Source: Rutstroemia sp. NJR-2017a BVV2 (Eukaryota; Ascomycota; Leotiomycetes; Helotiales; Rutstroemiaceae). Taken from it: 64,000 bases of DNA. The first letter of the stretch is position 1; each line of letters starts with the position of its first letter. The position numbers were made by a program, and so were the translations under genes. Below, piece after piece: positions 39,461 through 55,017 of the stretch. The notes beneath the pieces were generated by a model. It did not search any database. It was not told where the DNA came from and saw nothing but the letters and a program-made list of their open reading frames with translations. Location of the stretch: NCBI GenBank assembly GCA_002946415.1, contig NJPS01000074.1, positions 124,001-188,000 of the forward strand. The letters are read 5' to 3'.

Positions 39461-42400
39461 ATGGCCGCTTTTCTACGCAGTAAACAAGCTGGCATACAGA
39501 ATGATCTATCCGCTGGTATTCTCCCCGGATTGTTCGCTCCTGATGATCTTGATCGCTTTGGCATCAATTCCCAAATAGGGTACGTCCGCCTCCGCGTCCG
39601 CGGCCCATGCCATGCCATCCATGCCATGCGCAACATTCATTACTGACAGTTGACCATTTCAGATCTCTTGCATACGATCCGGTGCAATCCTTACTTGCTG
39701 TCGGCACAAACGAGACCACATTTGGTAGTGGGCAGATATATATCTTCGGTCAGAAAAGAGTCCAAGCGAAGCTTACACTGCCCCGTCGAGCTTCAGTGAA
39801 GACCCTACAGTTTTGCGCCGAGAAACTCGTCAGTCTCGATTCGAAGAACGAAGTGATAGTATGGGACATTGCGACTGCAAAGAAGCTGACGGCTTACTCT
39901 CCGCCGGGGATAGTAACCGTAATTGTTACGGATCCCATGCTTGATTGGTGTTTTATAGGCTTGCAGAATGGAGACATCATATGCTATGATTTGGACCGAG
40001 AAAAGCTTGCGCCTTTACGACTTCCCAATCTCTGGCGAGAGAAAAATCCGCGATCAAGACTGCTGTCATGCGTGTCGCTGCAATTACATCCTAGAGATAT
40101 TGGAAAGCTCTTAATTGGTTATACTGAGGGTGCAGTGATATACTCCTTCAAGCAAAACGCGCCGACGAAATACTTCCAATATGAAATTCCCCCCGGAGCG
40201 CCAGGTGGGGATGGAGACCCTATGCAGAAGAATGCGCCTAGACAACCACGTCTCACTCATGCGCTCTGGCACCCGACCGGCACATTCATCGCTACAGCTT
40301 ATGATGATGCCAGTCTTGTCTTCTGGGATCCCAAAGATGGGCGAATCGTCATGGCTCGCACTTTGACCGACACACATGTGAATGAACCTGGCCACTCAAA
40401 GCTCGCACCTGGTACTTTAGAACTGAAGGAGGACTTCAAGAAGATAGCTTGGTGTTGCAAGGAGAACCCGGATGATACTGGCCTACTAGTAGCAGGGGGT
40501 ACGGCAACTACTATCCCAACCAAAGGCATGACATTCCTGGAATTGGGAGTCACGCCTGTTTATCAGACTTCCAGCTGGCAGGTCTTAACTGATCACTTCG
40601 AGGCAAAACGGCAACATATCCTACCGATTCCTCTTGGCGCTGAAATCGCTGATTTCTGTCTGATTCCACGTTCATCCCCACATTTTGCAGGAGCACAAGA
40701 TCCTATCGCCGTTATCGCGCTACTTACATCAGGAGAGCTTGTCACACTAAGCTTCCCTTCTGGTCACCCAATCTCACCTACAAATCAACTTCCTCCGTCT
40801 CTTTCATTCGTCCACCCTTTCGTTATTTCGATGTCAGTCTCTGCTGTGGACCGTGGGAGATGGTTAGGAATGACGGAAACACGTGCTCAAGGACCTCAAC
40901 TGATTAAGGGTGGTGCTGAAGGACTAAAGCCATTAAGAAGATATGAGGCTCGAAACATTATCCAGACAGCTCACGGTGATGGAACTGTTCGAATCTGGGA
41001 TGCAGGTCATGGCGATGAACTGGAAAATCCTAACTCACTCCAGGTCGACATCGCTAGAGCTGTGGCACGCTATGAGGATGTCAATATCTCTTGCATTAAC
41101 ATGGCCTCGGCAACGGGAGAACTCTGCGTTGGCACGACTGCAGGCGAAACTGTAATTTACAGATGGGGCGGCAATAGAGCCTATGGTAGCGAGCAGCCTC
41201 CGAACGAGACCGTACGAGGGGGCATCACAGATATTTCTATACGCGCAGAGCCGTCGTTGAAAGAAGGGCTTCAACCTTTCGTCCTGTACGACATGGCACA
41301 AGGTCCTATCAGTGCCATCAGAATGTCTGATGTTGGTTTCGTTGGGGTAGGTTCCGAAGGTGGAGTCTTCTCAATTATTGACCTTCGTGGTCCTTCCGTC
41401 ATCTTCAATGCCTCTATGACGGATTTCATCAAACCAGACAAGAGAAGCAGCTTCCTCAAGAAGGGGAGCAGCCAGACTTCTGCCAGAACCGAGTGGCCAG
41501 TCTGCATAGAGTTCGGTGTCATGACTCTGGAGGACGATAAATATTCTAGTATTGCTTGCTTTGTGGGAACTAACATGGGAAAAGTTGCCACATTTAAAAT
41601 TCTTCCTCAACAGAATGGTGGATATACAGCCCAGTTTGTAGGCCTTACTGCTTGTGCCGATAAAGTTATTTCAATCACTCCTATCGTTGCCGATACTGGG
41701 AAACTTGCATCAGCTACAGGCCCTGCTGTGGCTGCTCTTCGAACTGGACAGCAAACACATGGTGTCCTCGTCGTTGGTAAGTTTTGGCAGTCCCATTATA
41801 TCAATCCATGCTAACATTCATCCAGTAACACAAAGTGAGGCTCGCATTTTCAAACCGGCTAGCGCAAAAGGAGCTCACAAGACCTGGGACGACGTATTCT
41901 GCGACTCAGCCGCCGTCAGCGAATACGAACTGCACGGTGTCGCTCTCGTCGGACTTTTCGGCGACGGCACCGCCCGCGCGTTCTCCATTCCCGCTCTGAA
42001 AGAAATAGGCATGGCCAAGCTGGAAATGCTCGACAAGACCCGCTCCACCAACAGCATCGTCACTCCCGCAGGCGATATTCTCGGCTGGACAGGACCCTCC
42101 GAAATCGCTATGCTCAACGTCTGGGGCACTGGCCAACCACTCCCCCGCTCCCAAGACAAACTCTTCAACCCACAAGCTCTCATCCCCCCGCGTCCCACCA
42201 TCTCGAATATGCAGTGGATCTCCGGTACACAGTATGTCTCACCTCTGGATCTGGATCTCCTCATCGGCGGCCCCGATCGCCCGCCTAGTAAACGCATGCT
42301 TGCCGCGTCGGCCGAAGAAGACCGATTGGCTAGATCCGGGGCGGGTGCTGGTTCTAGTAGTGCGCAAAATGCGGAGGGCTGGGGCGAGTACATGACTAGG

Positions 42401-42556
42401 CAGTTGAATGAACGCACCGAGAAATTAAATATCATGGGCGATAATATGGACAAGGTGCAGGAGAATAGTGCGGGCTGGGCGGAGGATGTGAATAAGTTTG
42501 TTAATAAGCAGAAGAGGAATATGTTGTTGGGTGGGATCACAGGGAAGTGGTTTTAG
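39461..42556 (+). CDS. SRO7: SRO7/lethal giant larvae/tomosyn family exocytosis regulator, 987 aa
   Basis: Three exons, 39461-39579, 39663-41776 and 41826-42556, encode 987 residues. The N-terminal and central parts form the double WD40-type beta-propeller of the Lgl/Sro7/tomosyn family: SLAYDPVQSLLAVGTNE, EVIVWDIATAKKLTAYSPP, ALWHPTGTFIATAYDDASLVFWD and GDGTVRIWDAGHGDELEN. The C-terminus ends in an R-SNARE-like coiled segment (ENSAGWAEDVNKFVNKQK, then LLGGITGKWF). The family binds the Qa/Qbc SNARE Sec9 and Sec4/Rab to control polarised exocytosis (family knowledge). The last codons and 3' UTR of this gene recur as a diverged copy 12.6 kb downstream. Confidence 0.95.
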
Positions 42557-42982: not shown

Positions 42983-44782
42983 TTAATCTTTTTTTATTTG
43001 CAAATATCCTTCTAGAGCCGTATATGGCCCTTTCTCAATCCTCGCCTTGAGATCCACTTGCGCCACCGCAAATATATTATAATCAATCGCCTTCTCCAGC
43101 TCCGTCTTCTCGTCCGCCTCTGGCTTCGCATACGGCTGCAACCAATCCCACTTTGCCACCGTCAGCGATGGAATCTTGACTGCAAACGTCGGCGGATCGT
43201 CCGGTTCAGGCGTCGGTGGCGGAACGAGCGACGTCGTTTTGCTACTCAGTGCCGCCGGGACGTCCTGGGTGACGAGCAGCGGGCCCATGTGAAAAAAGGC
43301 GTCCATCTTCTCAAACGCCTTTTGCCATGTGTAAGGCGGCAGCGAGAGCTCGCGGACGGGTAGGATGCAGTTGTAGCCGTGGACGGGGGTGAAGGGATCG
43401 ACGATGGCGCCGAAGCCGGTGAGCTTTCGGCAGTGGGCGGCGTCGAGAGCGGCAGCGTCGGGTTGTTCGTCGGGAGGGAGCCAGTAGGCTTGAAACTCGG
43501 GGAAGGTGGTTTGATCGATGGCCTTGAAGGACGGTGAGCTGTCGGCGGTTATGTAATACGTGTATATTGTGGACAAGTTTAGAGTATTGCCTGGCTTCAG
43601 GTCTTTGGGGTCGCTTGCCGCTTGCTTCCAGTAGCCGACGAGGCCGTCGTAGCTCTTAAATTTATCGCCGAGTTTGAGTGGAAAATTGTAAAGTGCGCTT
43701 GGCGCTGATTCATCTTTGCCGGGAGGAGAAGAGGCGGAAGAGGGAGTTGTTCCCGGCGGATTGGAAGCCACGTTCTTTTTCTTCTCTGGTGGTGGAACAA
43801 GTCGCCTTTCCATTGTCGAGTTCGACAGCATGGAATGGCTTTCATAAGGCTCGGAAGCCAGCTCGACAGACCATGCCATGTTAACAAGAGCGAGCGGATG
43901 GCCGATGGATGAGCTGAGAAACTCGGAATACGCTCCTGGGGCTGGCTGCATGGTGTCCATGGAAAGATTCAACATGTCGATGAAGGACATGAGGTACTTG
44001 TCATCCTGTCCGAGCTGGTCGATGAGGCTAAACACATTGCTGTTGTGTGGCTGGTAGTCTGCAAATAGTTGGTTGGAGCTATTGAACAGATTGAGCGATA
44101 CCCTTGGGTTCTGCGCTGTCTTCTTGTCGTCCCAGTCTTCTGCCTTGAAACGCTCGCCGATGAACACTTCGGTCTGCTCCGCAATGTCGTTTAGAGACCA
44201 GTTGGCATCGGTCTTTGAGTTGCTCTCCACCGCGACGTACGGCGACACATCAGTCTGGAGGTCGATTTCGGGTTCCAGCTCGTCAATTGTCCACTTGCGG
44301 TCGCTTTCAACAATCCAGGCTTGGTACTCTGAGACTTTTGCCTCTTTGGGTTCTATGCTCGTCAGATCTAATTTTCGAATCACGAGCCAGCGGCACGGGA
44401 CATTGTAAAATGAAGTTGCGGCCAGGCCATCGCTTTTGTTGTTTGCATCATCGTTATTCTCCTTTTTCTTCTTCTCCGTCGTGCCGTAGGCCGTTCGAAA
44501 GGGCCGCGGGATCATCCAGTGCACGTAGACTCCTTGTCGTTTCTTGTGAGGCGTCTGCGTTCCCAAATTTGTGAATCGCGAGTTGGAGCTCGCTGGAGTG
44601 GCAGAGTGCAGATCGACATGCCGCAAAATGTCGCTGGTGACGAGCTGCCGTTCGTACCGGAGCAGGGTGTAGTTTGGTTGCGTGATGGGCGCGATTTTGG
44701 CATCGTGGGAGGTTCCATTGCAGGCAGCTTCGTTGAAGACGAAGCAGTCTAGTTTCATAGGGATCAGGACTTTATTGGCCAT
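42983..44782 (-). CDS. Cassette protein 1: large uncharacterised bacterial-like protein, 599 aa
   Basis: A single uninterrupted exon. I place the start at the ATG at 44782 (MANKVLIPMKLDCFVFN). The frame is open upstream to 44926 but has no ATG there, and a minus-strand TATAAA lies 116 bp upstream. The 599-residue protein has no signal peptide or membrane helix. Recognisable conserved-looking blocks are APITQPNYTLLRY, ILRHVDLHSATP, RQGVYVHWMIPRPFR and PVHGYNCILPVREL. A Pro/Ser-rich insertion lies at roughly two thirds. The lack of introns and these blocks recall hypothetical proteins that sit beside DUF6603 genes in bacteria; this resemblance is from memory. It is the downstream member of a tandem pair with the 920-aa gene. 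Function is unknown. Confidence 0.85.
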   Translation of the reverse strand: MANKVLIPMKLDCFVFNEAACNGTSHDAKIAPITQPNYTLLRYERQLVTSDILRHVDLHSATPASSNSRFTNLGTQTPHKKRQGVYVHWMIPRPFRTAYGTTEKKKKENNDDANNKSDGLAATSFYNVPCRWLVIRKLDLTSIEPKEAKVSEYQAWIVESDRKWTIDELEPEIDLQTDVSPYVAVESNSKTDANWSLNDIAEQTEVFIGERFKAEDWDDKKTAQNPRVSLNLFNSSNQLFADYQPHNSNVFSLIDQLGQDDKYLMSFIDMLNLSMDTMQPAPGAYSEFLSSSIGHPLALVNMAWSVELASEPYESHSMLSNSTMERRLVPPPEKKKNVASNPPGTTPSSASSPPGKDESAPSALYNFPLKLGDKFKSYDGLVGYWKQAASDPKDLKPGNTLNLSTIYTYYITADSSPSFKAIDQTTFPEFQAYWLPPDEQPDAAALDAAHCRKLTGFGAIVDPFTPVHGYNCILPVRELSLPPYTWQKAFEKMDAFFHMGPLLVTQDVPAALSSKTTSLVPPPTPEPDDPPTFAVKIPSLTVAKWDWLQPYAKPEADEKTELEKAIDYNIFAVAQVDLKARIEKGPYTALEGYLQIKKD

Positions 44783-45360
44783 GATTGCGCTTCGGGGGGT
44801 TTTGATGGAAGATTGGGTGGTGGTGAAGCGCAGGGCAATGGGAGAGGAGGAAAAAGTAGGAGGAAGGAAAAGGCCTACATCTGGCGAGGACGGCTGCTTT
44901 ATATCTTTCTCACAGCGGCTGGCCACTCTGTTTGTATTTGTCCATATAGAGTCCTGATGGAACTGTCTTGCTTACAATTCCTTTTTGATGTTTTCAAAGT
45001 CGTTTAATGCCCGCACCGCGAATCTAGTGGCTCGATCAATCCACAAACTTCTTGCTGGATAATCATATTCGGCACGATCACGGCTGTGGACAATATTGAG
45101 AAACTTGGATGTTTTTTTCTTCTTCTTTTATTCAGGGATTTCTTTGGCACCTTTTCTACTTAGTTTCTTAGATTTAAATCTAGCTTCTCAAGGTGCTTCA
45201 AGCCTCAACCCAAGGGTCAGCAAGATACTGGACGTCAGTGTTGTCCTTCAGCATATACGTCAACATATTTTGTTTGAGCCCCGGCGAAACAGCTACAGAC
45301 AGCTGACACGCCGGATCCGGAAGCACGGCTTGGGATACAGTTGCCTTGGCCCAGACCTCG
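44783..45360. other. Promoter spacer between the two minus-strand cassette genes
   Basis: 578 bp between the end of the 920-aa gene and the ATG of the 599-aa gene. The spacing and the TATA box indicate separate transcription rather than a bacterial-type operon, so the cassette is arranged in eukaryotic fashion. Confidence 0.55.
44898..44903 (-). promoter_or_regulatory. TATA box of the 599-aa cassette gene
   Basis: TATAAA on the minus strand in GATATAAAG, 116 bp upstream of the ATG at 44782. It supports the internal ATG as the true start. Confidence 0.55.
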
Positions 45361-48123
45361 TCACCCTTGACCCACAAAGCCCGTTGCTGCGGCTTGCTGC
45401 GAGACGGTCGGGGTGTCTACTTTTGGTTGTTCACCAGCAGCGATGCTGGCGTCGAGCAGGTTGAGCTGAAAGGTCGGTCTCTCGCCCACAAGCTTTTGCA
45501 GGTCGGTGTTTTGCGTGATCGTGATCCTGCATACGGGAGAGCTCAGCTGGAAGCCGACAAGGGCCGAAGTACTTTTGATTTCGTCATAGTCGGCTTTGTC
45601 CATGGTGTCCAGCTTGTTTTCCAGATTCTTGACCCACGAATTCAACAAAAGCAATCGAAAATTGTTGTGCTCGCCTCGAAGAAAGTACTTGGAACCATTG
45701 AAAGATTCCAGTGTGCTATAATTGTACTCGTCTTCGTTCTTGACTTTGGAGTATGTTCGTCGATACTCCATTTCTATATCATTTGTCTTGATGCTTTTGG
45801 CAATGACGAAGGTTTGCTGGTGCGGAGGCTGCGTGAATGACAGCTCGCTGAGCTCAATGTCCGCCGGCGAGCGATCAAAAAGAACAAACAAAAGACCTTC
45901 ACCGATGACTTCTTGCCGTAATATTGGTGCTCTCATCTGCTCTTTTCCTTTGGTTAGAGGAGCCTTGACTCTGATGTCGGGGAATTGAGTGATCAGATCT
46001 GACCGTATCAAACAGCCAAACGAAGGGATCTGTGGGCGATATTTGATGTTGTTGTCTTGTCGCTTAAAGTACTCGTTAAGCGCCGTTTTGATAGCCCTCC
46101 GAATGAAATCATCCGTCCTCGATATGTAATTTGCCACGCTGAGAGCTCCATCAATCAAGGCATCCATCCAGTTTGGATCAATGTTGAAGAAGCGGACACT
46201 TTCGTTGGGAAGGAACGACGGGTCGGCAACGAGATACTGAATGGGAATGCCAATGAAATAGAGTCGGTCCAAAATCCATGTGAGCATAACCATCCAGTCT
46301 GATGACGTGGAAGCATTGAGTTCGCTATACAAGCGCTCGACGCTGTCCGAATCTCTAGTGATGTCTTTATCCGCTGCAGCTAGCAACTTGGCTCGCTCCA
46401 CAGCTAGCTCGGCCGCCTTGAAACGAATCTCATTGTTTGAAAGCGTCAAATCCAACGCCGGGCCTCGTGCTCCACCTCGCCAGCGATTTCCGGGCCTCAG
46501 ATCGCTACTTGGTTGGTTCATGTTCTCCAGCGTCGTCAACGCGGGGGACATACGCTTCAAAGCATGAACAAGCGTCAACGTCGCATTTTCTTCCTCTGAT
46601 TTTGTTGCTTTAGACTCGTTGAATGCCCAAATCCCGATCTGCGTTCTTAGCGCTGTGATAGCTTTGGTGAAAGGTTGATCAGCTAGGGCCAACGCTTTCC
46701 CCAGACTCCATGCAGTCGAGTAGGTAATGTCTAGCATACCTGTCTCCCGATCTAGAAATCGCATATCCGTGCCGCAATTCGACATGGATGTGAAATTTCC
46801 ATTCAGTTTGGGAGGTGAAATGATTGGCACTAAGGCTCCACGATAGAAAGATGCTGTGTCCTCTCCGGTTGGAGTTCGATATCGAACCATGGTGTATCCA
46901 TCGTGAAGACGTTTGGAGAGCACAGGAGCAGCAAAGACCGTGCTATTCTTGAGGCTTTCGAAAACTGTATCTGGAGCCCGCAGTAGCGCGATGTTCTTTT
47001 GGAGCTTTTCGAAGCGATCAAACATCGAAAGTGTCCCAGTGGGCATTGCTGTGTACGTCCAGCTGTAAAGGGATACCATGGCCACGTACTTGACCTTCTT
47101 CGGATCAATAAGATTTATCTTATCCCATCCCTCCAGCGACATTAAGTGAGCAATGACTGGAGCCTCGGAATCCTCACTGAGAGGCCCGGATCGATGAGAG
47201 ACTGCAACGCTGAAGAGACCTGGACCGTAGGTCGCTGATGTCGCCATGCCCGCCGTCTTGACTTGGCGGACGTGAGCCAAATATCGATAGTGGCCAATGT
47301 CTGCTTTTGTTTGGCCTGTTCTTACATTTGAATCTTTGTCGAATGTGGTGATAAACTGGTTGAATAATGCTGGTTTGTTCAAGAATGCAACTTCCACGAC
47401 TGGGTTTTGTTCTCGGCCCGAAGGCTTCTGGATTGTTGAAACCAAGCTGTCTTTGCAGTTGGTTTCTACTTGTAAAAAGTCATTGTAGGTCATTTTCATC
47501 GTAAATACGCCGGTTTGCCGCAGTGGTTTTCCGGCTGTCTTCGCATCTTTAGCAATTTGTGTGCCTCGAAAGAATGCTGCATCGTCGGCGAGATCCTCCG
47601 GCGCAAGTTGAAGTTCTTCAGGTTCAAAAGGAAAAACAGCAACCCAAGGGACTTTCTCACGCGTCTCAACGAGTGGGTTGCCATCGACATCGAGCCCGTG
47701 AGCTTCTCTCTCCCAGGGCAGATGCGGGTCTGAGAATACGATAGACGGGAGAGCTTCAGTCGGAGCTTTTTCCCCTTCTGCCGGATACGTCGAATGAACG
47801 CAGCCGTCCGGCAACGAAAACTGCGCTGCCTCGACGATGAATTCTTTTTGCGTTTGTCGCTGTGGATCGAGCGTCTGCTTGGGCTTGTTTCTGGTGGTGC
47901 TCACGGATTGGGTGATAGTCACCTCGTGCGAACCGGCTTCCAGGCTTGGGTAAAAATACGAAGATAATTGTTGCGTTCCATCTTTGATAACTGCTGTCCG
48001 GGGATCTTTCGGATCTGGAGGAGGTTTGTCTTTCAAGAAGGTCGGGTTCAGATCTCTAACGTGGCGCAATGTCAGAAACCGAAGGGCGCTGGCGATGGAC
48101 TTATCATCGAGGAGGGTCGCCAT
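45361..48123 (-). CDS. Cassette protein 2: very large uncharacterised bacterial-like protein, 920 aa
   Basis: A single uninterrupted 920-codon exon beginning MATLLDDKSIASALRFL. There is no signal peptide and no membrane helix. The N-terminal half is beta-rich (EVTITQSVSTTRN, QFSLPDGCVHSTYPAEGEK, VPWVAVFPFEPEEL). The centre has a helical part, and the C-terminal third has LDRLYFIGIPIQYLV, DPSFLPNESVRFFNID, WMDALIDGALSVANY and a beta-rich tail. These blocks recall bacterial proteins of about 900 residues encoded next to MBL/DUF6603 genes (recollection, not a search). The frame is intact over 2.76 kb, so selection appears to have kept it. It is divergent from the broken MBL-DUF6603 gene; the 5' ends are separated by about 400 bp. 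Confidence 0.87.
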   Translation of the reverse strand: MATLLDDKSIASALRFLTLRHVRDLNPTFLKDKPPPDPKDPRTAVIKDGTQQLSSYFYPSLEAGSHEVTITQSVSTTRNKPKQTLDPQRQTQKEFIVEAAQFSLPDGCVHSTYPAEGEKAPTEALPSIVFSDPHLPWEREAHGLDVDGNPLVETREKVPWVAVFPFEPEELQLAPEDLADDAAFFRGTQIAKDAKTAGKPLRQTGVFTMKMTYNDFLQVETNCKDSLVSTIQKPSGREQNPVVEVAFLNKPALFNQFITTFDKDSNVRTGQTKADIGHYRYLAHVRQVKTAGMATSATYGPGLFSVAVSHRSGPLSEDSEAPVIAHLMSLEGWDKINLIDPKKVKYVAMVSLYSWTYTAMPTGTLSMFDRFEKLQKNIALLRAPDTVFESLKNSTVFAAPVLSKRLHDGYTMVRYRTPTGEDTASFYRGALVPIISPPKLNGNFTSMSNCGTDMRFLDRETGMLDITYSTAWSLGKALALADQPFTKAITALRTQIGIWAFNESKATKSEEENATLTLVHALKRMSPALTTLENMNQPSSDLRPGNRWRGGARGPALDLTLSNNEIRFKAAELAVERAKLLAAADKDITRDSDSVERLYSELNASTSSDWMVMLTWILDRLYFIGIPIQYLVADPSFLPNESVRFFNIDPNWMDALIDGALSVANYISRTDDFIRRAIKTALNEYFKRQDNNIKYRPQIPSFGCLIRSDLITQFPDIRVKAPLTKGKEQMRAPILRQEVIGEGLLFVLFDRSPADIELSELSFTQPPHQQTFVIAKSIKTNDIEMEYRRTYSKVKNEDEYNYSTLESFNGSKYFLRGEHNNFRLLLLNSWVKNLENKLDTMDKADYDEIKSTSALVGFQLSSPVCRITITQNTDLQKLVGERPTFQLNLLDASIAAGEQPKVDTPTVSQQAAATGFVGQG

Positions 48124-48513
48124 TCTACGTTGGATTCGGATCAGACTGTCATCTTATTCTTCATATGTATTAATATTTCATGTTCGAACAAGTCTCAAAA
48201 GTGACTGCGCACGAAACTAAGTGATTCATGGTAGAATCCTAGAGAAACTGCTACAGGAGGCTAATGCAAGCCGCTGAGCTGTAAACCATGAGCTTGGGCG
48301 TCTAGAGGTCTGGATCTAGCCTCTAGGCTCTAGGTAAGGTAAGGTTAGTCCCGCATTTGGAATTTTGTTTTTCCGGTTCATTTCTCCTGCCGTTCGCTAC
48401 AGCGCTGCAAGTGGCCTTAGCTGACCGGGGGTCTGTGCGCATTTACTTCCTGTTATGTAACTTTGGGTCGGCCATATTCTGCTTTGTACGTTCGTTCGTG
48501 TTCTGAAGCGGCG
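48124..48513. other. Divergent promoter region inside the cassette
   Basis: Lies between the 920-aa gene (minus) and the MBL-DUF6603 gene (plus). It contains repeated CTAG/CTCTAGG words at 48297-48335. The N-terminal exon of the plus-strand gene could not be found here, suggesting 5' loss or rearrangement. Confidence 0.4.
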
Positions 48514-51500
48514 TCGCTTTTGCATAACAGTTCGCACTAATCTTGACGGCGACTTCACCAGCATTGTTACTTGACGATCGAACTGGTGATCTGTACATTC
48601 AATAACCTCAAGCTCGACAGCCAGAACCCACGATGGGATCACTTTCTCTACGACCCAAACAACAACCAGGAAGTGAGCATGTTTTGCGTTGCGTCCAATA
48701 CTAACGTTGTCGGGCACGCTAACGGTGCGCCTGACCTCGATTTGAGGACCCATACGACCTGTTTCTATCCAAGATTAACTCTTCGGACACGAACAAGAGC
48801 TCGATTGCAGCGATCGTGGTGTGGGCCGGTGGTAAGGTGTCGCACCACTTTGCCGGCGATCTCGGTGCGCTCGAGGAAGTTGCCATCGCCGAATGGCTAG
48901 CCCGTAATAATGTGAACAAGATTCACGTGATGAAGGCCAGCCACCACGGTTCTAGAGGCTCCAATCCACCTGTCCTACTCACCCGGTACAATCCTGACTT
49001 CTTTGTGATTTCAGCAGGAGGAAGGCACGGACATCCCTGTGAGTGAACATGACTTTGTCCTCGTAACCAGCCATCAAAACAAACTCACTAACCATGGTCT
49101 GCTAATGATGGTTATGGCATGGCAAATGATGCTCGTCTTGGATCAATGGATCAGGCGACGTCAGGCTGCTGGGCAAACAATACCTCCGCTTCTTGTCACC
49201 CGCTACCCGTACTGGATGGAGCTGGGCAATGAAGACGGAATCGACGTAGATCCCTTCGTGATTGACCGCAATCTAGCCGCTCACAGTTGGGGCGAAAATG
49301 TGCAGTCCCGGTTAATCAATGCTACCCACTACACTGCCCTGATGCAAGAGCTCTACGACGTAGGCTACCAGCAGAGCATCTACGCCAGACTTTTGCAAAC
49401 ACACACCGACCGCTACGACGCCAATCCACCGGATATTCCTACGACACTCCAGCGTATCGAATCGGTGGCGGAAGCACTGCGCGGCCGGCATGCCGAGCTG
49501 TTTGGCCACGTCTGGGACAACAAGAAACTCAACGTGGGAAAAAAAACTTGAGTACATCACGATTTCGCAGACAAGTGGAAAGGACGTTGTACAGTCAAAC
49601 ATCGAGCTCACGATCATGGGCAGCACGAAGAAACTGAGTAAACTGGCAAAAGAGTGCATAGTCAAGGACGAAGTAACCAGAAAAGACGTTGTGTTGAAAA
49701 AGTGTGGGGTTTTCATTAGGAAGAAGTCTAGGAAGAAATATACCGAAGAGTCCAACTTGTACCGAAAGGCACAGACTTTTTTGGTTCGGAACCAGGACTC
49801 ATACAAACTACTTCGTGAAGGCGACGGCATTATTGCGAAATGTTTGAAATATAGTCAACAAGGCGGTGGCGGCGGCAATAGCTCGGGAGGAGGAGGAGGA
49901 GGTGGTGGTGGTGGTGGTGGTGGTGGAGGTCTGCACAGTTTCAAGGTGATGAAGTCAGAAAATATAGCTGCCATGCCCAACTTTTTCGAAGCGAAAAGAG
50001 ATCTGACTCCTCAGCCTTCAGCCTCTGCCCAGCAACAGCAAGGGTCACCAATGACTATAACAACGACGACCAAAAAGACAGTGACAAACGAACACTTCCC
50101 CTACAGCGCCTTATGCAGCCAGCTAGAAGTTCAGCCCGACATTTTGAGCCTGTCTTCCCAACACAGGTTCCTAACCAAAGACACCCTCATCGATCTATTC
50201 GTTTCCACAATGGACGACCCTGCCTTTCACCTGAGCCAACTTCCTCAGACTGCTGCCGAGGACTGGATTCCACTTCACACTAACGATAACACAGCCCTGT
50301 GGCTAGAACTCACTTTGCAAGTCAAGGTGGATCTCAAAGTGTCCGCCACCAGCATGAGTAACCTAAGAATCACTGTTGGCAGAAAGCTCGAGGTTTGCAC
50401 GGGCAAGGCAGGCCAAGGACTATCAGGTATGGAAAAGGTTTTCGTCGGCCTAGGTCTCTCACCATGGACTGCGTACAGCGAAATGGTCTTTGGAGCCACG
50501 GTCGAGTCGATTGCCACTTTCCCAACCTACTCGACCAAGGAAATTCTCTCGCTCATTCCTGCTTCGGGAGCCGAGGCGTCGAGCTCCTCAGTACCAGTTC
50601 GCCGATGCTGGCACCGCTTTACGATCTACAGTGGAAGCTGAGCAGAGACGCCAAGAATGCAATATGGCTGAATCCAGGAGACCAGCACTCGGCCATAATT
50701 CGTCTCGAGTTCGAGCTGGTTTCAGCCGTCGACGGCATAGGCAGTTTATTCAAATCGCTGTTCCCAACTGGTTTCGACGCCTCCATCACCGTTCCACGAC
50801 TCATACTCAGGAAGCAAACTTCGTTGCTCGGCATCTTAGATGATCCCAAAAGACTAGATTCACAGCGATCCGTCATCTTGACTTCTGTGCTGGATCTTTC
50901 CTACACAGAATCCAGCAGAACAAAAACATCCGCCAAGCTACGTCTCAACCTCGAATTGCTGCAAACCGGCTCGATACAACTTGAAATGATGACCTTCGAC
51001 AGCAAGACCGACTTCACCGCCCTCGCTAAAAACCTCGTCATGGGCGGCCTCGGCCTGAGCAAAGATGCCATTTCCTTCGACGGCGACTCGACCAAGGACA
51101 TCTTCGAGAATACCCGCTTCCGGCGACTAAACCTCACGATCAACCAAAACCACAAAGTCGAGAGCGCTTCTTTGACCATTGAAGTCAGTTCCAAGATTGG
51201 CAAAGACAAAACCAAGGCAGACAACGTTCCGCTACTTCTTCAAGTCAGCTACCAAAACAGCAACGCTTCGGCATGGACCCTTCCCGGTGAATTGTGGTTC
51301 GTTCCCGCCGACGGTCTTCCGTTCGATCTTCTCAGTAATCTCGAGTACTGCAGGCTGTTTTTTCCTCTCACCCCAAATCCGGCTTCTTCACTCAAATTGT
51401 CCAATCTTCTCCCGGGCGATTCCATAACGATACCCAAAGGAGTGCCAGATTCCATCACAGACGCAAGGTTCAGCATATCTTCAGAGGTGGTCAGCGTCAA

Positions 51501-54500
51501 TGGCACGATCAAGGACTGCACCATGCAGTCGACGGCAAGCGACAATACTGACGACGTGCCACCCTTCAGGCTGGCAGAGGTCTCGCTCAGTGCATCGTAC
51601 AGCTTTACGACTAAGTTCCCGCAGGTGCAGCTCAACTTTCGCTGCGCTCTGCGGTTGCCAAACGGCCAACTAGCTCCGGAGGAATGCTCCCTCTGGGGCA
51701 GCTTTGAGTATTCTAAACCCAAGTAGCAGGTCTCCGCCCGGATCAGCAATCTGAACCTGGGCATGGTGTACGACCTCTTCGAGAAACAGCATCAAGATGT
51801 GTTGTACGAGCTTCTTAAAGGTATCTGTATCCAAGATCTTGCCCTCAGCTACGGCTCGGAGGGCGAAACGCCCAAGCTCACCTGTGATGGAGACATGATG
51901 TTAGGCAGTAATCAGCGTCTTCGGATCCATTACGAATATCCCAAAGGTGGTAACTGGTCCTTTAAGTCATCACTTACCACGGAAGATATAAAAAACAACG
52001 TCACCTTGGGTGATATCTTAGGGGGAATGCTCGGTTCTGACAGCCGCATTATTAGTGACTTACCAGACTTCCTAAAGGAAGTGACTATCATGGGACCGGG
52101 CATAGTTAACCCAAGCTTCAATCTTGATGTTTATAAGAACGCAGATGGCAACGTAAGATTTCAAGTTGCGGCAGAACTGCAGGGGTTCAAATTTTCCTTC
52201 ATTCAGACTGGACATAAAGACACAACTGATCCAGCCAACCCAAAGACGGTGACCAACAGAATATTCCACGCTTCTGTAGACACGATAACAATGCCTGATG
52301 GTATACCGCTGATGGACAAACTGGACAAGCCTTTTGACGAGCTTGGATTCCTATGGGTGAACAGAGATCTCACAAAAACAGAAGTACTGGTGCTGGACCC
52401 CAGTCTTAACTTCGACAAAGGAGCGACTGGTGCGGATGGCAAGGCTGCCGCAGGTGGAGAGGACAAAGGCATCGCAATGAGTGCAGGATTTCACTTCGTT
52501 ATCATTGCCAGCAGCAAAGTCGTTTTAGACTACCCTCTCTCCAAGAAAAAGGCATCGACGCCTGTCAATTCCAAAAGCGAAAGTCAAGATACTGGTGCCA
52601 ATACTGGCGCTGTTGTCAAAGCGGGAAGCAGTGGCTCAACAATCACGAACAATGATGCCGGGGCTCAGAAACAATCGCCAAAGGCAAAGTACAAAAAGAT
52701 CATTGGTCCGCTGAGCATCAGTAATGTCGGTTTCAAGTTTGAAGGGAACACGCTGTCTATCCTTTTGGATGCGACTTTCGAGTTCGGCCCGGTCATATTT
52801 TCGCTCTACAACTTCACGCTTGGTCTTCACTTCGAATCAACATCGGTATCGACCGGTGACGCTGCAAGCGACTTCTCCAAAAGATTCAGCGTCCAGGTTT
52901 CCATCAGTGGCTTTGGAGTTGAGTACGACAAGCCACCGCTTACAATCGGCGGGGACTTTTTGGTCCAGAAAGAAGATGGGAGCGTCATCTATGCCGGCGG
53001 AGTGGCCATTGGCTTTACGCCATGGTTGTTCCAAGCGGCAGGATTTTATGGCGAAATCAAAATTGAGGGCAAGGATAATCCTTTGAAATGCTTCCTTATC
53101 TACGCCACTCTGCGTGGACCCATCATGAATTTCGCCTACGCCGATATATCAGGACTGACTTTGGCGTTCGCTTACAATGTCGACATCACTATCCCAACGG
53201 TGGAAGCAGTGACGCAGTTCCCCCTTTTAACACCTTCGACCCAGAATGTGACGCCTCGACAAACAATCAAACAGATGATTCCAAGTGCCAAGGAACGAAA
53301 TCCATACTTCAACCCGCAGGAGGGAGCAAGCTGGTTTGCAGCCGGTCTCACTATGACCGCCTTCCAAATGCTTCAGGTAACAGCACTTGTGGTCATCCAA
53401 TGGAGTCCAAGTCTCAAGTTCGCCATCTTGGGGGTCGCCATCTGCGATGTCCCGTCCAAGAAACTGACCGGCGACACAACTGTGTTCCAGTTTGCTCATT
53501 TTGAGCTCGGCATCCTTGCTACAGTCGATCCACAAGTGGGTCTGTTCAAGGTAGAAGCGCAGCTGTCTCCGAATTCATACATCTTGCACCCAGACTGCCA
53601 TCTGACTGGCGGAGTCGTCTTTATGTTTGGTCCAAAGACGGCGACAATGGTGCCACCAAGGGAGACTGGGTCTGCACGACTGGTGATATCATAGCGCATT
53701 TGTTGTGCCCAAGAGCTATCCCAAATCTGACCGACTCAAGATCAGCTGGTCTGTCAATGACTCACTTTCAATCTCTGGTGAGGCATACTTCGCTATTACT
53801 CCCAAAGTATGCATGGGAGGTGTACAAATCCATGCAGCTTTATGCCTTGGGGCCCTTCGCGCATGGTTTGATGCTTATGCCGACTTTCTAATAAACTTTG
53901 CGCCATTCCACTTCTAGGCAACAGGTCATGTCTCCGTCGGCATTTCATTCTCCATGAGCGTATGGTTCGTCACAGTCAGCATCTCAGCAGAGATTGGAGC
54001 CACGTTGACCCTGCGCGGACCGCCACTGGGCGGCACTGTTCATGTAGACTTCTGGGTGTTTAGCTTTGACATTGATTTTGGCAAGTCAGGTACGCCTGAA
54101 GACCCACTGGCTATTCGAGGCTTCTGGAAGTTAGTGCTGCAATAAAAAGCCCCTCCGAAGGACGCAAAGGCTGGGATCGACGGGGACCCCAAGGATGCTC
54201 ACCTCTTCCTCTGCAATCAGGATTTGTTGGCCGGCTCCATCACAGACGTAAAGCCTGAAGATCCATGGTATGTGCGAGGAGCGGTGTTCGAGTTTAGCAT
54301 CACGGCATATTTTGCCGTCAACTCCATCTCACTGAACGATGTGCCGGTTGATGTGCCTGCCTATCTCAATGGCATATATGCGAGGCCAATGCAGCTTACC
54401 GATACACTGGACTCAAAATTAACAGTAATGATAACTGAGGGCGAGGCAAAGACGAAAAAGAGTGGATGGAAGTTGAGTCCAGTAATCAAGGCCGTGCCGC

Positions 54501-55017
54501 AAGGGGTATGGGGATTATGTGAGTAGCATCATTCATCTCCTTAGGCTCTTATTCGGGATTTGCACTAACGTCCCTTGTTTCGAACGCAGACAATAGCGAC
54601 AACGATCCAAACCACTCCAACAACAACAATATTGGAGAGCTCTTGGATCCGAAGGGAGGGACAAGCAACCTTTGGATGGGTCTAAGCCTACAAGCCCCGA
54701 TCCCAAAGATGTCGGATACTATCCCGGCATACAATCTTGATAAGGATATGACTACGGATGTAGACGGCCCAGGAGCAGTGAAGACTTTCCGGATTCTGGA
54801 GGAAGAAGAAAAGGCCTGGGGACCAGAGAAAGACGAGGGACCAACTCAATGGAAAACCGTGACTGCGGCATGGAAAAGCGCACCCACACCAAACAATATT
54901 GTGAACCTATTCGGGGACGTGACTGGACTAAATAGCCTATCCACCAAGAAGCCTACTATTTATCTCAACAACCTGGATAAACTATGTCTGAAGGCACCTC
55001 TACTGAAGGTGTTTTGA
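48514..55017 (+). pseudogene. Broken giant gene: metallo-beta-lactamase fold plus DUF6603-like region
   Basis: Coding character runs almost continuously for 6.4 kb in changing frames, about 2,100 codons. The first part (to about 49040) is a ComEC-like metallo-beta-lactamase fold: AAIVVWAGGKVSHHFAGDLG, then KASHHGSRGSNPP and SAGGRHGHP, which include the metal-binding histidines. A helical linker (49070-49860) and a polyglycine tract follow. The rest is beta-rich and ends in a DUF6603-like domain (VEYDKPPLTIGGDFL, GGVAIGFTPWLFQAAGFYGE, GEAYFAITPKVCMGG, TLTLRGPPLGGTVHVDFW). Single-base frame changes occur near 48745, 49037, 49540-49547 (A8 run), 50580, 53645 and 53690. In-frame stops are TAG 51724-51726, TAG 53915-53917 and TAA 54143-54145. 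Extra shifts are likely at 48535-48600. A canonical intron, 54519-54589, remains spliceable. It therefore looks like a recently inactivated gene. Confidence 0.85.
49862..49930 (+). repeat. Polyglycine-encoding GGN microsatellite
   Basis: A run of GGC/GGA/GGT codons (about five GGA, then about nine GGT) interrupted once by NSS. It encodes a Gly-rich linker between the helical part and the beta-rich part of the MBL-DUF6603 gene. Confidence 0.85.

What the first reader, a model, noticed from the sequence alone, without database searches (positions are those of the whole stretch)
42983..55017. Three-gene, bacterial-looking cassette (599 aa, 920 aa, MBL+DUF6603) inside a fungal chromosome
Two very long intronless ORFs of unknown function stand next to a divergent giant gene that fuses a ComEC-like metallo-beta-lactamase fold to a DUF6603-like beta-rich region. 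The neighbouring host genes have several introns each. From memory, similar proteins of these three sizes occur side by side in bacteria. If so, a whole functional set was transferred and its gene order kept, which points to an undescribed system whose parts work together. Function cannot be inferred from sequence.
Basis: partly seen in the sequence, partly recalled or inferred. Interest (0 to 1): 0.88.

Follow-up and report, generated by a model that had tools for sequence, protein, structure and literature searches.

The report
Decayed copy of a three-gene machine
A set of three giant, uncharacterised genes that sits side by side in bacteria, archaea and fungi is present in this fungus as a broken remnant; its near-fixed order across such distant life suggests an undescribed molecular machine.

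Summary
The 599-aa and 920-aa ORFs and a DUF6603 gene are where stated. In bacteria and archaea the same families follow one another on one strand, DUF6603 > 920-family > 599-family. Of 15 places picked by DUF6603, 11 have clear 920- and 599-family genes, 2 a weak 920 match, 2 none. Plasmids of Streptomyces, Embleya and Paenibacillus carry it too. Fungi form one clade in all three trees; fungal DUF6603 and 920 subtrees share 9 of 9 splits. Three bacterial loci have a ComEC-type metallo-beta-lactamase upstream; some fungal proteins have it fused to DUF6603. In the window the set is a relic: the giant gene has three in-frame stops, frameshifts and no lactamase metal motif; against relatives the 920-aa ORF lacks about 230 C-terminal and the 599-aa ORF about 460 internal residues. 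Function is inferred: an intracellular scaffold assembly that can carry a phosphoesterase or nuclease. Direction of transfer is not shown.

The parts
42983..44782 (-). 599-aa ORF, internally shortened member of the 599 family (about 1000-1360 aa in fungi, about 1250 aa in many bacteria); residues 1-270 match the start, 252-598 the end of P0121 (1005 aa)
   Evidence: bacterial relatives
45361..48123 (-). 920-aa ORF, C-terminally shortened member of the 920 family (1100-1230 aa in most listed fungal relatives, about 780-800 aa or two ORFs of about 500+290 aa in prokaryotes)
48658..49515 (+). C-terminal part of a ComEC-type metallo-beta-lactamase domain (SHHGSRGSN kept, HxDxDH metal motif absent), with frame changes; an intron-like stretch at about 49038-49116
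50087..53652 (+). Middle of the broken giant gene, beta-rich region plus first part of DUF6603 (52693-53625); frame change at 50560-50617; in-frame TAG 51724-51726
53687..54518 (+). Second part of DUF6603 and following region, in another frame; in-frame TAG 53915-53917 and TAA 54143-54145
54519..54589 (+). Intron (GTGAGT...CGCAG), read from the sequence; relatives' alignment is interrupted here
   Evidence: inference
54590..55017 (+). Last exon of the giant gene, to the stop codon

Best explanation
The window holds a decaying copy of a conserved three-gene unit (DUF6603 giant, 920 family, 599 family), in some carriers with a fourth part, a hydrolase. Shown: the unit and its order in bacteria, archaea and plasmids, linkage and common inheritance of DUF6603 and 920 in fungi, a ComEC-type metallo-beta-lactamase (MBL) domain fused to DUF6603 in some fungi and as a separate upstream gene in three bacteria, and the decay of this copy. 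Inferred: the three big proteins form one obligate intracellular assembly. DUF6603 would supply a very large antiparallel beta-sheet shell or belt, the 920 family small beta-sandwich arms around a helical hub, and the 599 family a third large part that may hold a coiled coil. An exchangeable phosphoesterase or nuclease is mounted on it where present (MBL in several loci, PhoD-like in one, possibly an EEP-type nuclease in another). Likely role: a mobile, accessory system that sequesters and cleaves a nucleic acid or other phosphodiester substrate.
For: Order and strand: six loci found by the 920 family, 6 of 6 with the 599 family following, DUF6603 in 5 of the 6 genomes; 15 places found by DUF6603 (one in a seed genome, on another contig), 11 with clear 920 and 599 genes; 6 plasmid regions opened, 6 of 6 with 920+599 and 5 of 6 with DUF6603. 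Co-occurrence in one bacterial family: 599 family in 8 of 295 genomes, all 8 among the 9 with DUF6603 over cut-off. Trees. MBL: L046 422 aa (PF00753 1.5e-9, over cut-off; TIGR00361 3.8e-22, below its cut-off), S. clavuligerus L059 and Embleya L060 (phmmer 8.4e-6 and 9.3e-13), Embleya MBL to solved ComEC 9vc6 at E 0.0017; fungal fusions P0157, P0159, P0162. PhoD-like PF09423 4.4e-9, over cut-off, upstream in L052. Structures: DUF6603 model pLDDT 77, domain mostly above 90, about 22 long strands; 920 model pLDDT 81. Coiled-coil hint for the 599 family: only weak matches of profile positions 425-521 to coiled-coil chains, E 0.76 or worse. A simple hydropathy scan of 15 proteins shows no membrane helix as strong as the positive control. 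Decay.
Against: The hydrolase is not universal: of 14 upstream regions looked at, 3 have a MBL, 1 PhoD, 1 a weak EEP-like gene, 1 NlpC/P60, and 8 nothing recognisable as such, several of these judged by eye only; of 72 fungal and other DUF6603 hits only one carries a precomputed MBL domain, and in P0157 and P0159 the MBL scores below Pfam's cut-off and matches the bacterial MBL only at E 0.002. The hydropathy scan is no signal-peptide predictor, and the gammaproteobacterial DUF6603 has a stretch near residue 27 (2.51) close to the control (2.68). No complex, activity or substrate was tested. Exceptions to linkage: G026 has DUF6603 without the other two, P. sonchi has 920+599 without DUF6603, G564 has a third gene that does not match the 599 profile. 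In the two archaeal loci with DUF6603 held one gene lies between DUF6603 and 920, and in L040 two ORFs lie between 920 and 599.
Confidence: 0.55

Rival explanations
1. Lipid or hydrophobic-cargo carrier: DUF6603 is an open amphipathic beta-belt that holds lipid, and the associated enzymes are lipases and phospholipases.
Against: TM-scores in the listed rows are 0.04-0.32 and such matches are common for any long beta-meander; the MBL is of ComEC type, not a known lipase family.
Confidence: 0.2
2. Exported weapon or delivery particle (in the way of extracellular injection systems) whose cargo is the hydrolase.
For: Giant proteins without obvious signal peptides, patchy spread, presence on plasmids and a baseplate-V gene about 9 kb upstream on the P. 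polymyxa plasmid; the protein after the 599 gene in L012 matches a PHROG named virion structural protein (2.6e-7).
Against: No PHROGs family for the L010 920 and 599 proteins up to E 1, no phage record with the 599 family, no viral contig with the 920 family.
Confidence: 0.15
3. The three genes are ordinary linked fungal genes without a common function, and the bacterial resemblance is convergence or annotation noise.
For: None found; the fungal clade is widespread in the Pezizomycotina looked at.
Against: Same order in bacteria and archaea, strong profile matches, all 9 fungal splits shared.
Confidence: 0.02
4. The locus is a contaminant or an assembly error, and the frameshifts are sequencing mistakes.
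For: Frame changes alone could come from indel errors; one lies close to a run of eight A.
Against: The window lies inside a 767,815-base contig of a 43.4 Mb genome with a host gene beside it; the sequences fall inside the fungal clade; three stops and two large deletions are not indel errors, and the two neighbouring ORFs run for 599 and 920 codons without a break.
Confidence: 0.06

Closest known systems
DUF6603 (PF20248)
   Same: The giant gene's core matches this family far over its cut-off.
   Different: Only a domain of unknown function; the 920 and 599 ORFs match no Pfam or NCBIfam family over cut-off. No paper in the held library contains 'DUF6603'.
ComEC/Rec2 metallo-beta-lactamase domain
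   Same: The bacterial upstream genes and the fungal N-terminal domain share HxDxDH-like and HHG motifs (motif names recalled, letters); TIGR00361 3.8e-22 (below its cut-off), PDB 9vc6 E 0.0017.
   Different: No membrane channel part; fused or linked to DUF6603; in the window the metal motif is gone.
Anti-phage MBL effectors (LmuA, DRT-associated MBL, Avs1a, 6A-MBL)
   Same: The L046 MBL matches these models (PADLOC 1.4e-21 to 7.8e-10; NCBIfam Avs1a 5.7e-13 and 6A-MBL 1.9e-12, both below cut-off).
   Different: The matches are to the MBL fold only; of the five other proteins given, the three large ones included, none matches PADLOC.
Operon or cluster transfer into or between fungi (bacterial siderophore operon in yeasts, recalled; nitrate cluster among fungi, PMC2040219, and bacterial genes in Wickerhamiella/Starmerella, PMC13376923, listing and start of abstract seen)
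   Same: Several linked genes shared by distant lineages.
   Different: Here the genes are three giants of unknown function shared by Bacteria, Archaea and Ascomycota, and the direction is not shown.

Membership tests
DUF6603 family | PF20248 over curated cut-off | tested here: met
   239 bits against 27; second part 188 bits
DUF6603-920-599 three-gene unit | three families adjacent in the order DUF6603, 920, 599 | tested here: met
   window layout 599<-920<- ->DUF6603 keeps neighbours, but the giant gene is turned round; in the prokaryotic loci all are on one strand
DUF6603-920-599 three-gene unit | three complete open genes | tested here: not met
   giant gene broken, other two shortened
ComEC-type metallo-beta-lactamase (active enzyme) | HxDxDH metal-binding motif | tested here: not met
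   that part finds no match in the window; present in P0159 and in L046, L059, L060
Anti-phage defence system | large components match known defence models | tested here: not met
   PADLOC at E 0.1: 0 families for the three large P. tuaregi proteins
Anti-phage defence system | protects a host from phage or virus | not testable with these tools
   needs an experiment
Extracellular contractile injection system | sheath, tube and baseplate genes in the locus | tested here: inconclusive
   selected neighbours only were scanned; one virion-structural PHROG match downstream in L012; one baseplate-V gene about 9 kb away in L056
Outer-membrane beta-barrel or apolipoprotein-like belt | fold of the DUF6603 domain | tested here: inconclusive

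The most novel reading that the evidence does not exclude
A mobile conflict system shared by Bacteria, Archaea and Ascomycota: a giant DUF6603-920-599 cage that mounts an exchangeable nuclease, acquired whole by fungi, where in some the nuclease was fused to the cage, and used against invading nucleic acid; the window shows one lineage losing it.
Probability: 0.2. Interest if true: 0.92.

Novelty: categorically new. Interest (0 to 1): 0.74.

Why it matters
A gene order of three giants kept among Bacillota, Proteobacteria, Actinomycetota and archaea, with at least two of the three still linked in ascomycetes, is strong evidence for one machine that nobody has described, as far as these searches show. 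Separate genes in bacteria against a fusion in fungi name a testable partner enzyme. Named carriers with the trio (for example Streptomyces clavuligerus, Paenibacillus polymyxa, Embleya) make it accessible at once, and the fungal copies offer a case of a multi-gene unit inherited together across a subphylum.

Tried and rejected

Rows dropped or limits: one search lists 120 of 151 hits and scored 7999 candidates, one search lists 72 and scored 7987; the trees used 10 fungal pairs that share contig length and source in those tables, and 9 of the prokaryotic loci. The trees are quick ones with SH-aLRT only; the tool warned of long branches (Paen_L038 with Paen_L039 and one more in the 920 tree, archaea with fungi in the DUF6603 tree), and two of the nine fungal splits have low support in the 920 tree (64 and 62). 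G062 (below cut-off) is not counted among the 15 places; G773 (28.8 bits, 4,086-base contig) and G026 count as misses; G493 and G564 have only weak 920 matches (1e-5 to 1e-7) and no 599 match. L057 counts as a miss for DUF6603. Of the 8 plasmid records two (H1, H3, same species as H2) were not opened.

Full report
What is in the window. The two ORFs are real and match no Pfam or NCBIfam family over cut-off. The plus-strand neighbour holds DUF6603. Search of the window's own genome places the window at contig C72, 124001-188000, of a 43.4 Mb assembly; with the family model PF20248 and the protein P0121 as queries it showed no DUF6603 and no 599-family match outside the window, but with the 920 protein a decayed second piece on contig C10 with several stops.

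This copy is a relic. Most of the 120 listed relatives of the 920 protein are 1100-1230 aa long; the nearest, P0001, is 1128 aa, 76% identical, and aligns over residues 1-900, so the window's protein stops about 230 residues early. The 599 protein joins parts that match residues 12-239 and 698-999 of a 1005-aa relative; about 460 residues between are absent. One other protein, P0122 (490 aa), is also short in the middle but with other borders, so a short form may not be decay alone. The giant gene, held against intact fungal relatives of 2237-2253 aa, lacks the first 190-220 residues with the metal motif of the lactamase domain, changes frame at four places without an evident intron and has three in-frame stops. 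One 71-base interruption (54519-54589) looks like a normal intron.

The same three genes in prokaryotes. A scan with the 920-family alignment found six prokaryotic loci: Paenibacillus tuaregi, Azospirillum agricola, a gammaproteobacterial MAG, Pseudoalteromonas, a Poseidonia MAG and another euryarchaeal MAG. In 6 of 6 the 599 family follows the 920 family; DUF6603 is present in five of the six genomes, and the contig of the sixth begins about 0.9 kb before its 920 gene. To avoid circularity I then searched by DUF6603: 10 of 295 genomes of the P. tuaregi family at E <= 0.001, 9 over cut-off; 6 of 369 of the Pseudoalteromonas class; 3 of 243 of the Poseidonia phylum (seeds are included in these counts). 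Leaving out the seed loci, 15 places over cut-off remain, among them a second one in the Azospirillum genome. Eleven have clear 920- and 599-family genes (eight, G309, G192 and G206); G564 and G493 have weak 920 matches; G026 has neither and G773 lies on a 4-kb contig. In the first of these groups the 599 family occurs in 8 of 295 genomes, all 8 among the 9 with DUF6603 over cut-off. Plasmids of Streptomyces clavuligerus, Embleya (two), another Streptomyces and Paenibacillus polymyxa carry the trio; P. sonchi has 920 and 599 only. In some prokaryotes the 920 is split into two ORFs, and in archaea the 599 is split too; in the two archaeal loci with DUF6603 held one gene lies between DUF6603 and 920, and in L040 two ORFs lie between 920 and 599.

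Fungi. Ten pairs of a 920-family and a DUF6603 protein share contig length and source in the tables; locus tags put them one to three numbers apart where they can be read (Trco_001505/001506, MAM_03328/03330, CHGG_00065/00068, ACHAPO_009644/009647, IL306_013800/013797). P0005 looks like a 920-family protein that ends in the tail of a 599-family protein, as expected if the two genes are neighbours on one strand. In the trees the fungi are one side of a branch against bacteria and archaea for all three proteins, and the 11-row fungal subtrees of DUF6603 and 920 share 9 of 9 splits, against a mean of 0.33 and a maximum of 5 in 10,000 relabellings; two of these splits are weakly supported in the 920 tree. 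The subtree does not follow taxonomy: Metarhizium (Hypocreales) groups with Nemania (Xylariales), and Fusarium lateritium (Hypocreales) with Hypoxylon (Xylariales), so the unit was duplicated or moved as a whole. The seven named species that I looked up are all Pezizomycotina, among them Orbilia and Rhizina.

A fourth part. Upstream of DUF6603 in one genome of the P. tuaregi family (L046) and in S. clavuligerus (L059), next to it, and in Embleya (L060), with a 343-aa ORF between, lies a ComEC-type metallo-beta-lactamase gene; in Fusarium piperis, Trichoderma cornu-damae and Colletotrichum costaricense such a domain is the N-terminal part of the DUF6603 protein, by weak scores except in the last. 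A PhoD-like phosphatase takes the place in G564 and an EEP-like protein possibly in P. tuaregi. Of 14 upstream regions looked at, 8 show none of these and one an NlpC/P60 protein, so the enzyme is an optional part.

How it may work. The DUF6603 model shows about 22 long antiparallel strands; matches are to porin-like barrels at 12-16 A rmsd and to ApoB100 and SprA at 5.5 A, which fits a broad, gently curved sheet more than a small barrel; such scores can mean only a common arrangement. The 920 model has beta-sandwich-like parts and a helical core and no good match. The 599 family was not folded; its only structural hint is weak matches to coiled-coil chains (E 0.76 or worse). A simple hydropathy scan of 15 proteins shows no stretch as strong as the positive control, though the gammaproteobacterial DUF6603 comes close. 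I therefore take it as an intracellular assembly that can mount a phosphoesterase or nuclease; this step is inference and I give it no more than even odds.

Novelty. No paper in the held library contains the name DUF6603; two further searches on gene-cluster transfer, of which I saw 8 of 327 and 10 of 22 hits as listings, showed no title or abstract start that describes this unit. Other names could exist. As a system it fits no described kind that I tested.

Noticed in passing
G000:C10:130778-131997 (loci L002-L004): A second, badly decayed piece of the 920 family (37-39% identical, several stops) elsewhere in the same genome.
   Followed up: partly
window 39607-42556: Host gene of the Lgl type (WD40 plus Lgl_C) directly beside the cassette; used as a composition control.
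   Followed up: partly
window 49880-49930: Run of GGN triplets inside the broken giant gene, read as poly-glycine in one frame.
   Followed up: no
L012:16199-22087, L013:16075-22038: Downstream of the trio in gammaproteobacteria: a beta-rich-looking protein with a match to a virion-structural PHROG (2.6e-7), glycine-rich proteins and a Lipase_3 gene; Azospirillum L042 has a relative of the first, and Paenibacillus and Azospirillum L011 a gene of another family at that place. A possible larger operon.
   Followed up: partly
L048:1-4999: Archaeal neighbours upstream: an NlpC/P60 plus peptidoglycan-binding protein and an alpha/beta-hydrolase-like protein of 998 aa, odd for an archaeon.
   Followed up: partly
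L057 (Paenibacillus sonchi plasmid): 920 and 599 genes without DUF6603, near an IS630 transposase and a group II intron, perhaps another decaying copy.
   Followed up: no
L040:2362-5911: Two ORFs of unknown type (541 and 645 aa) sit between the 920 and 599 genes in one genome of the P. tuaregi family.
   Followed up: no
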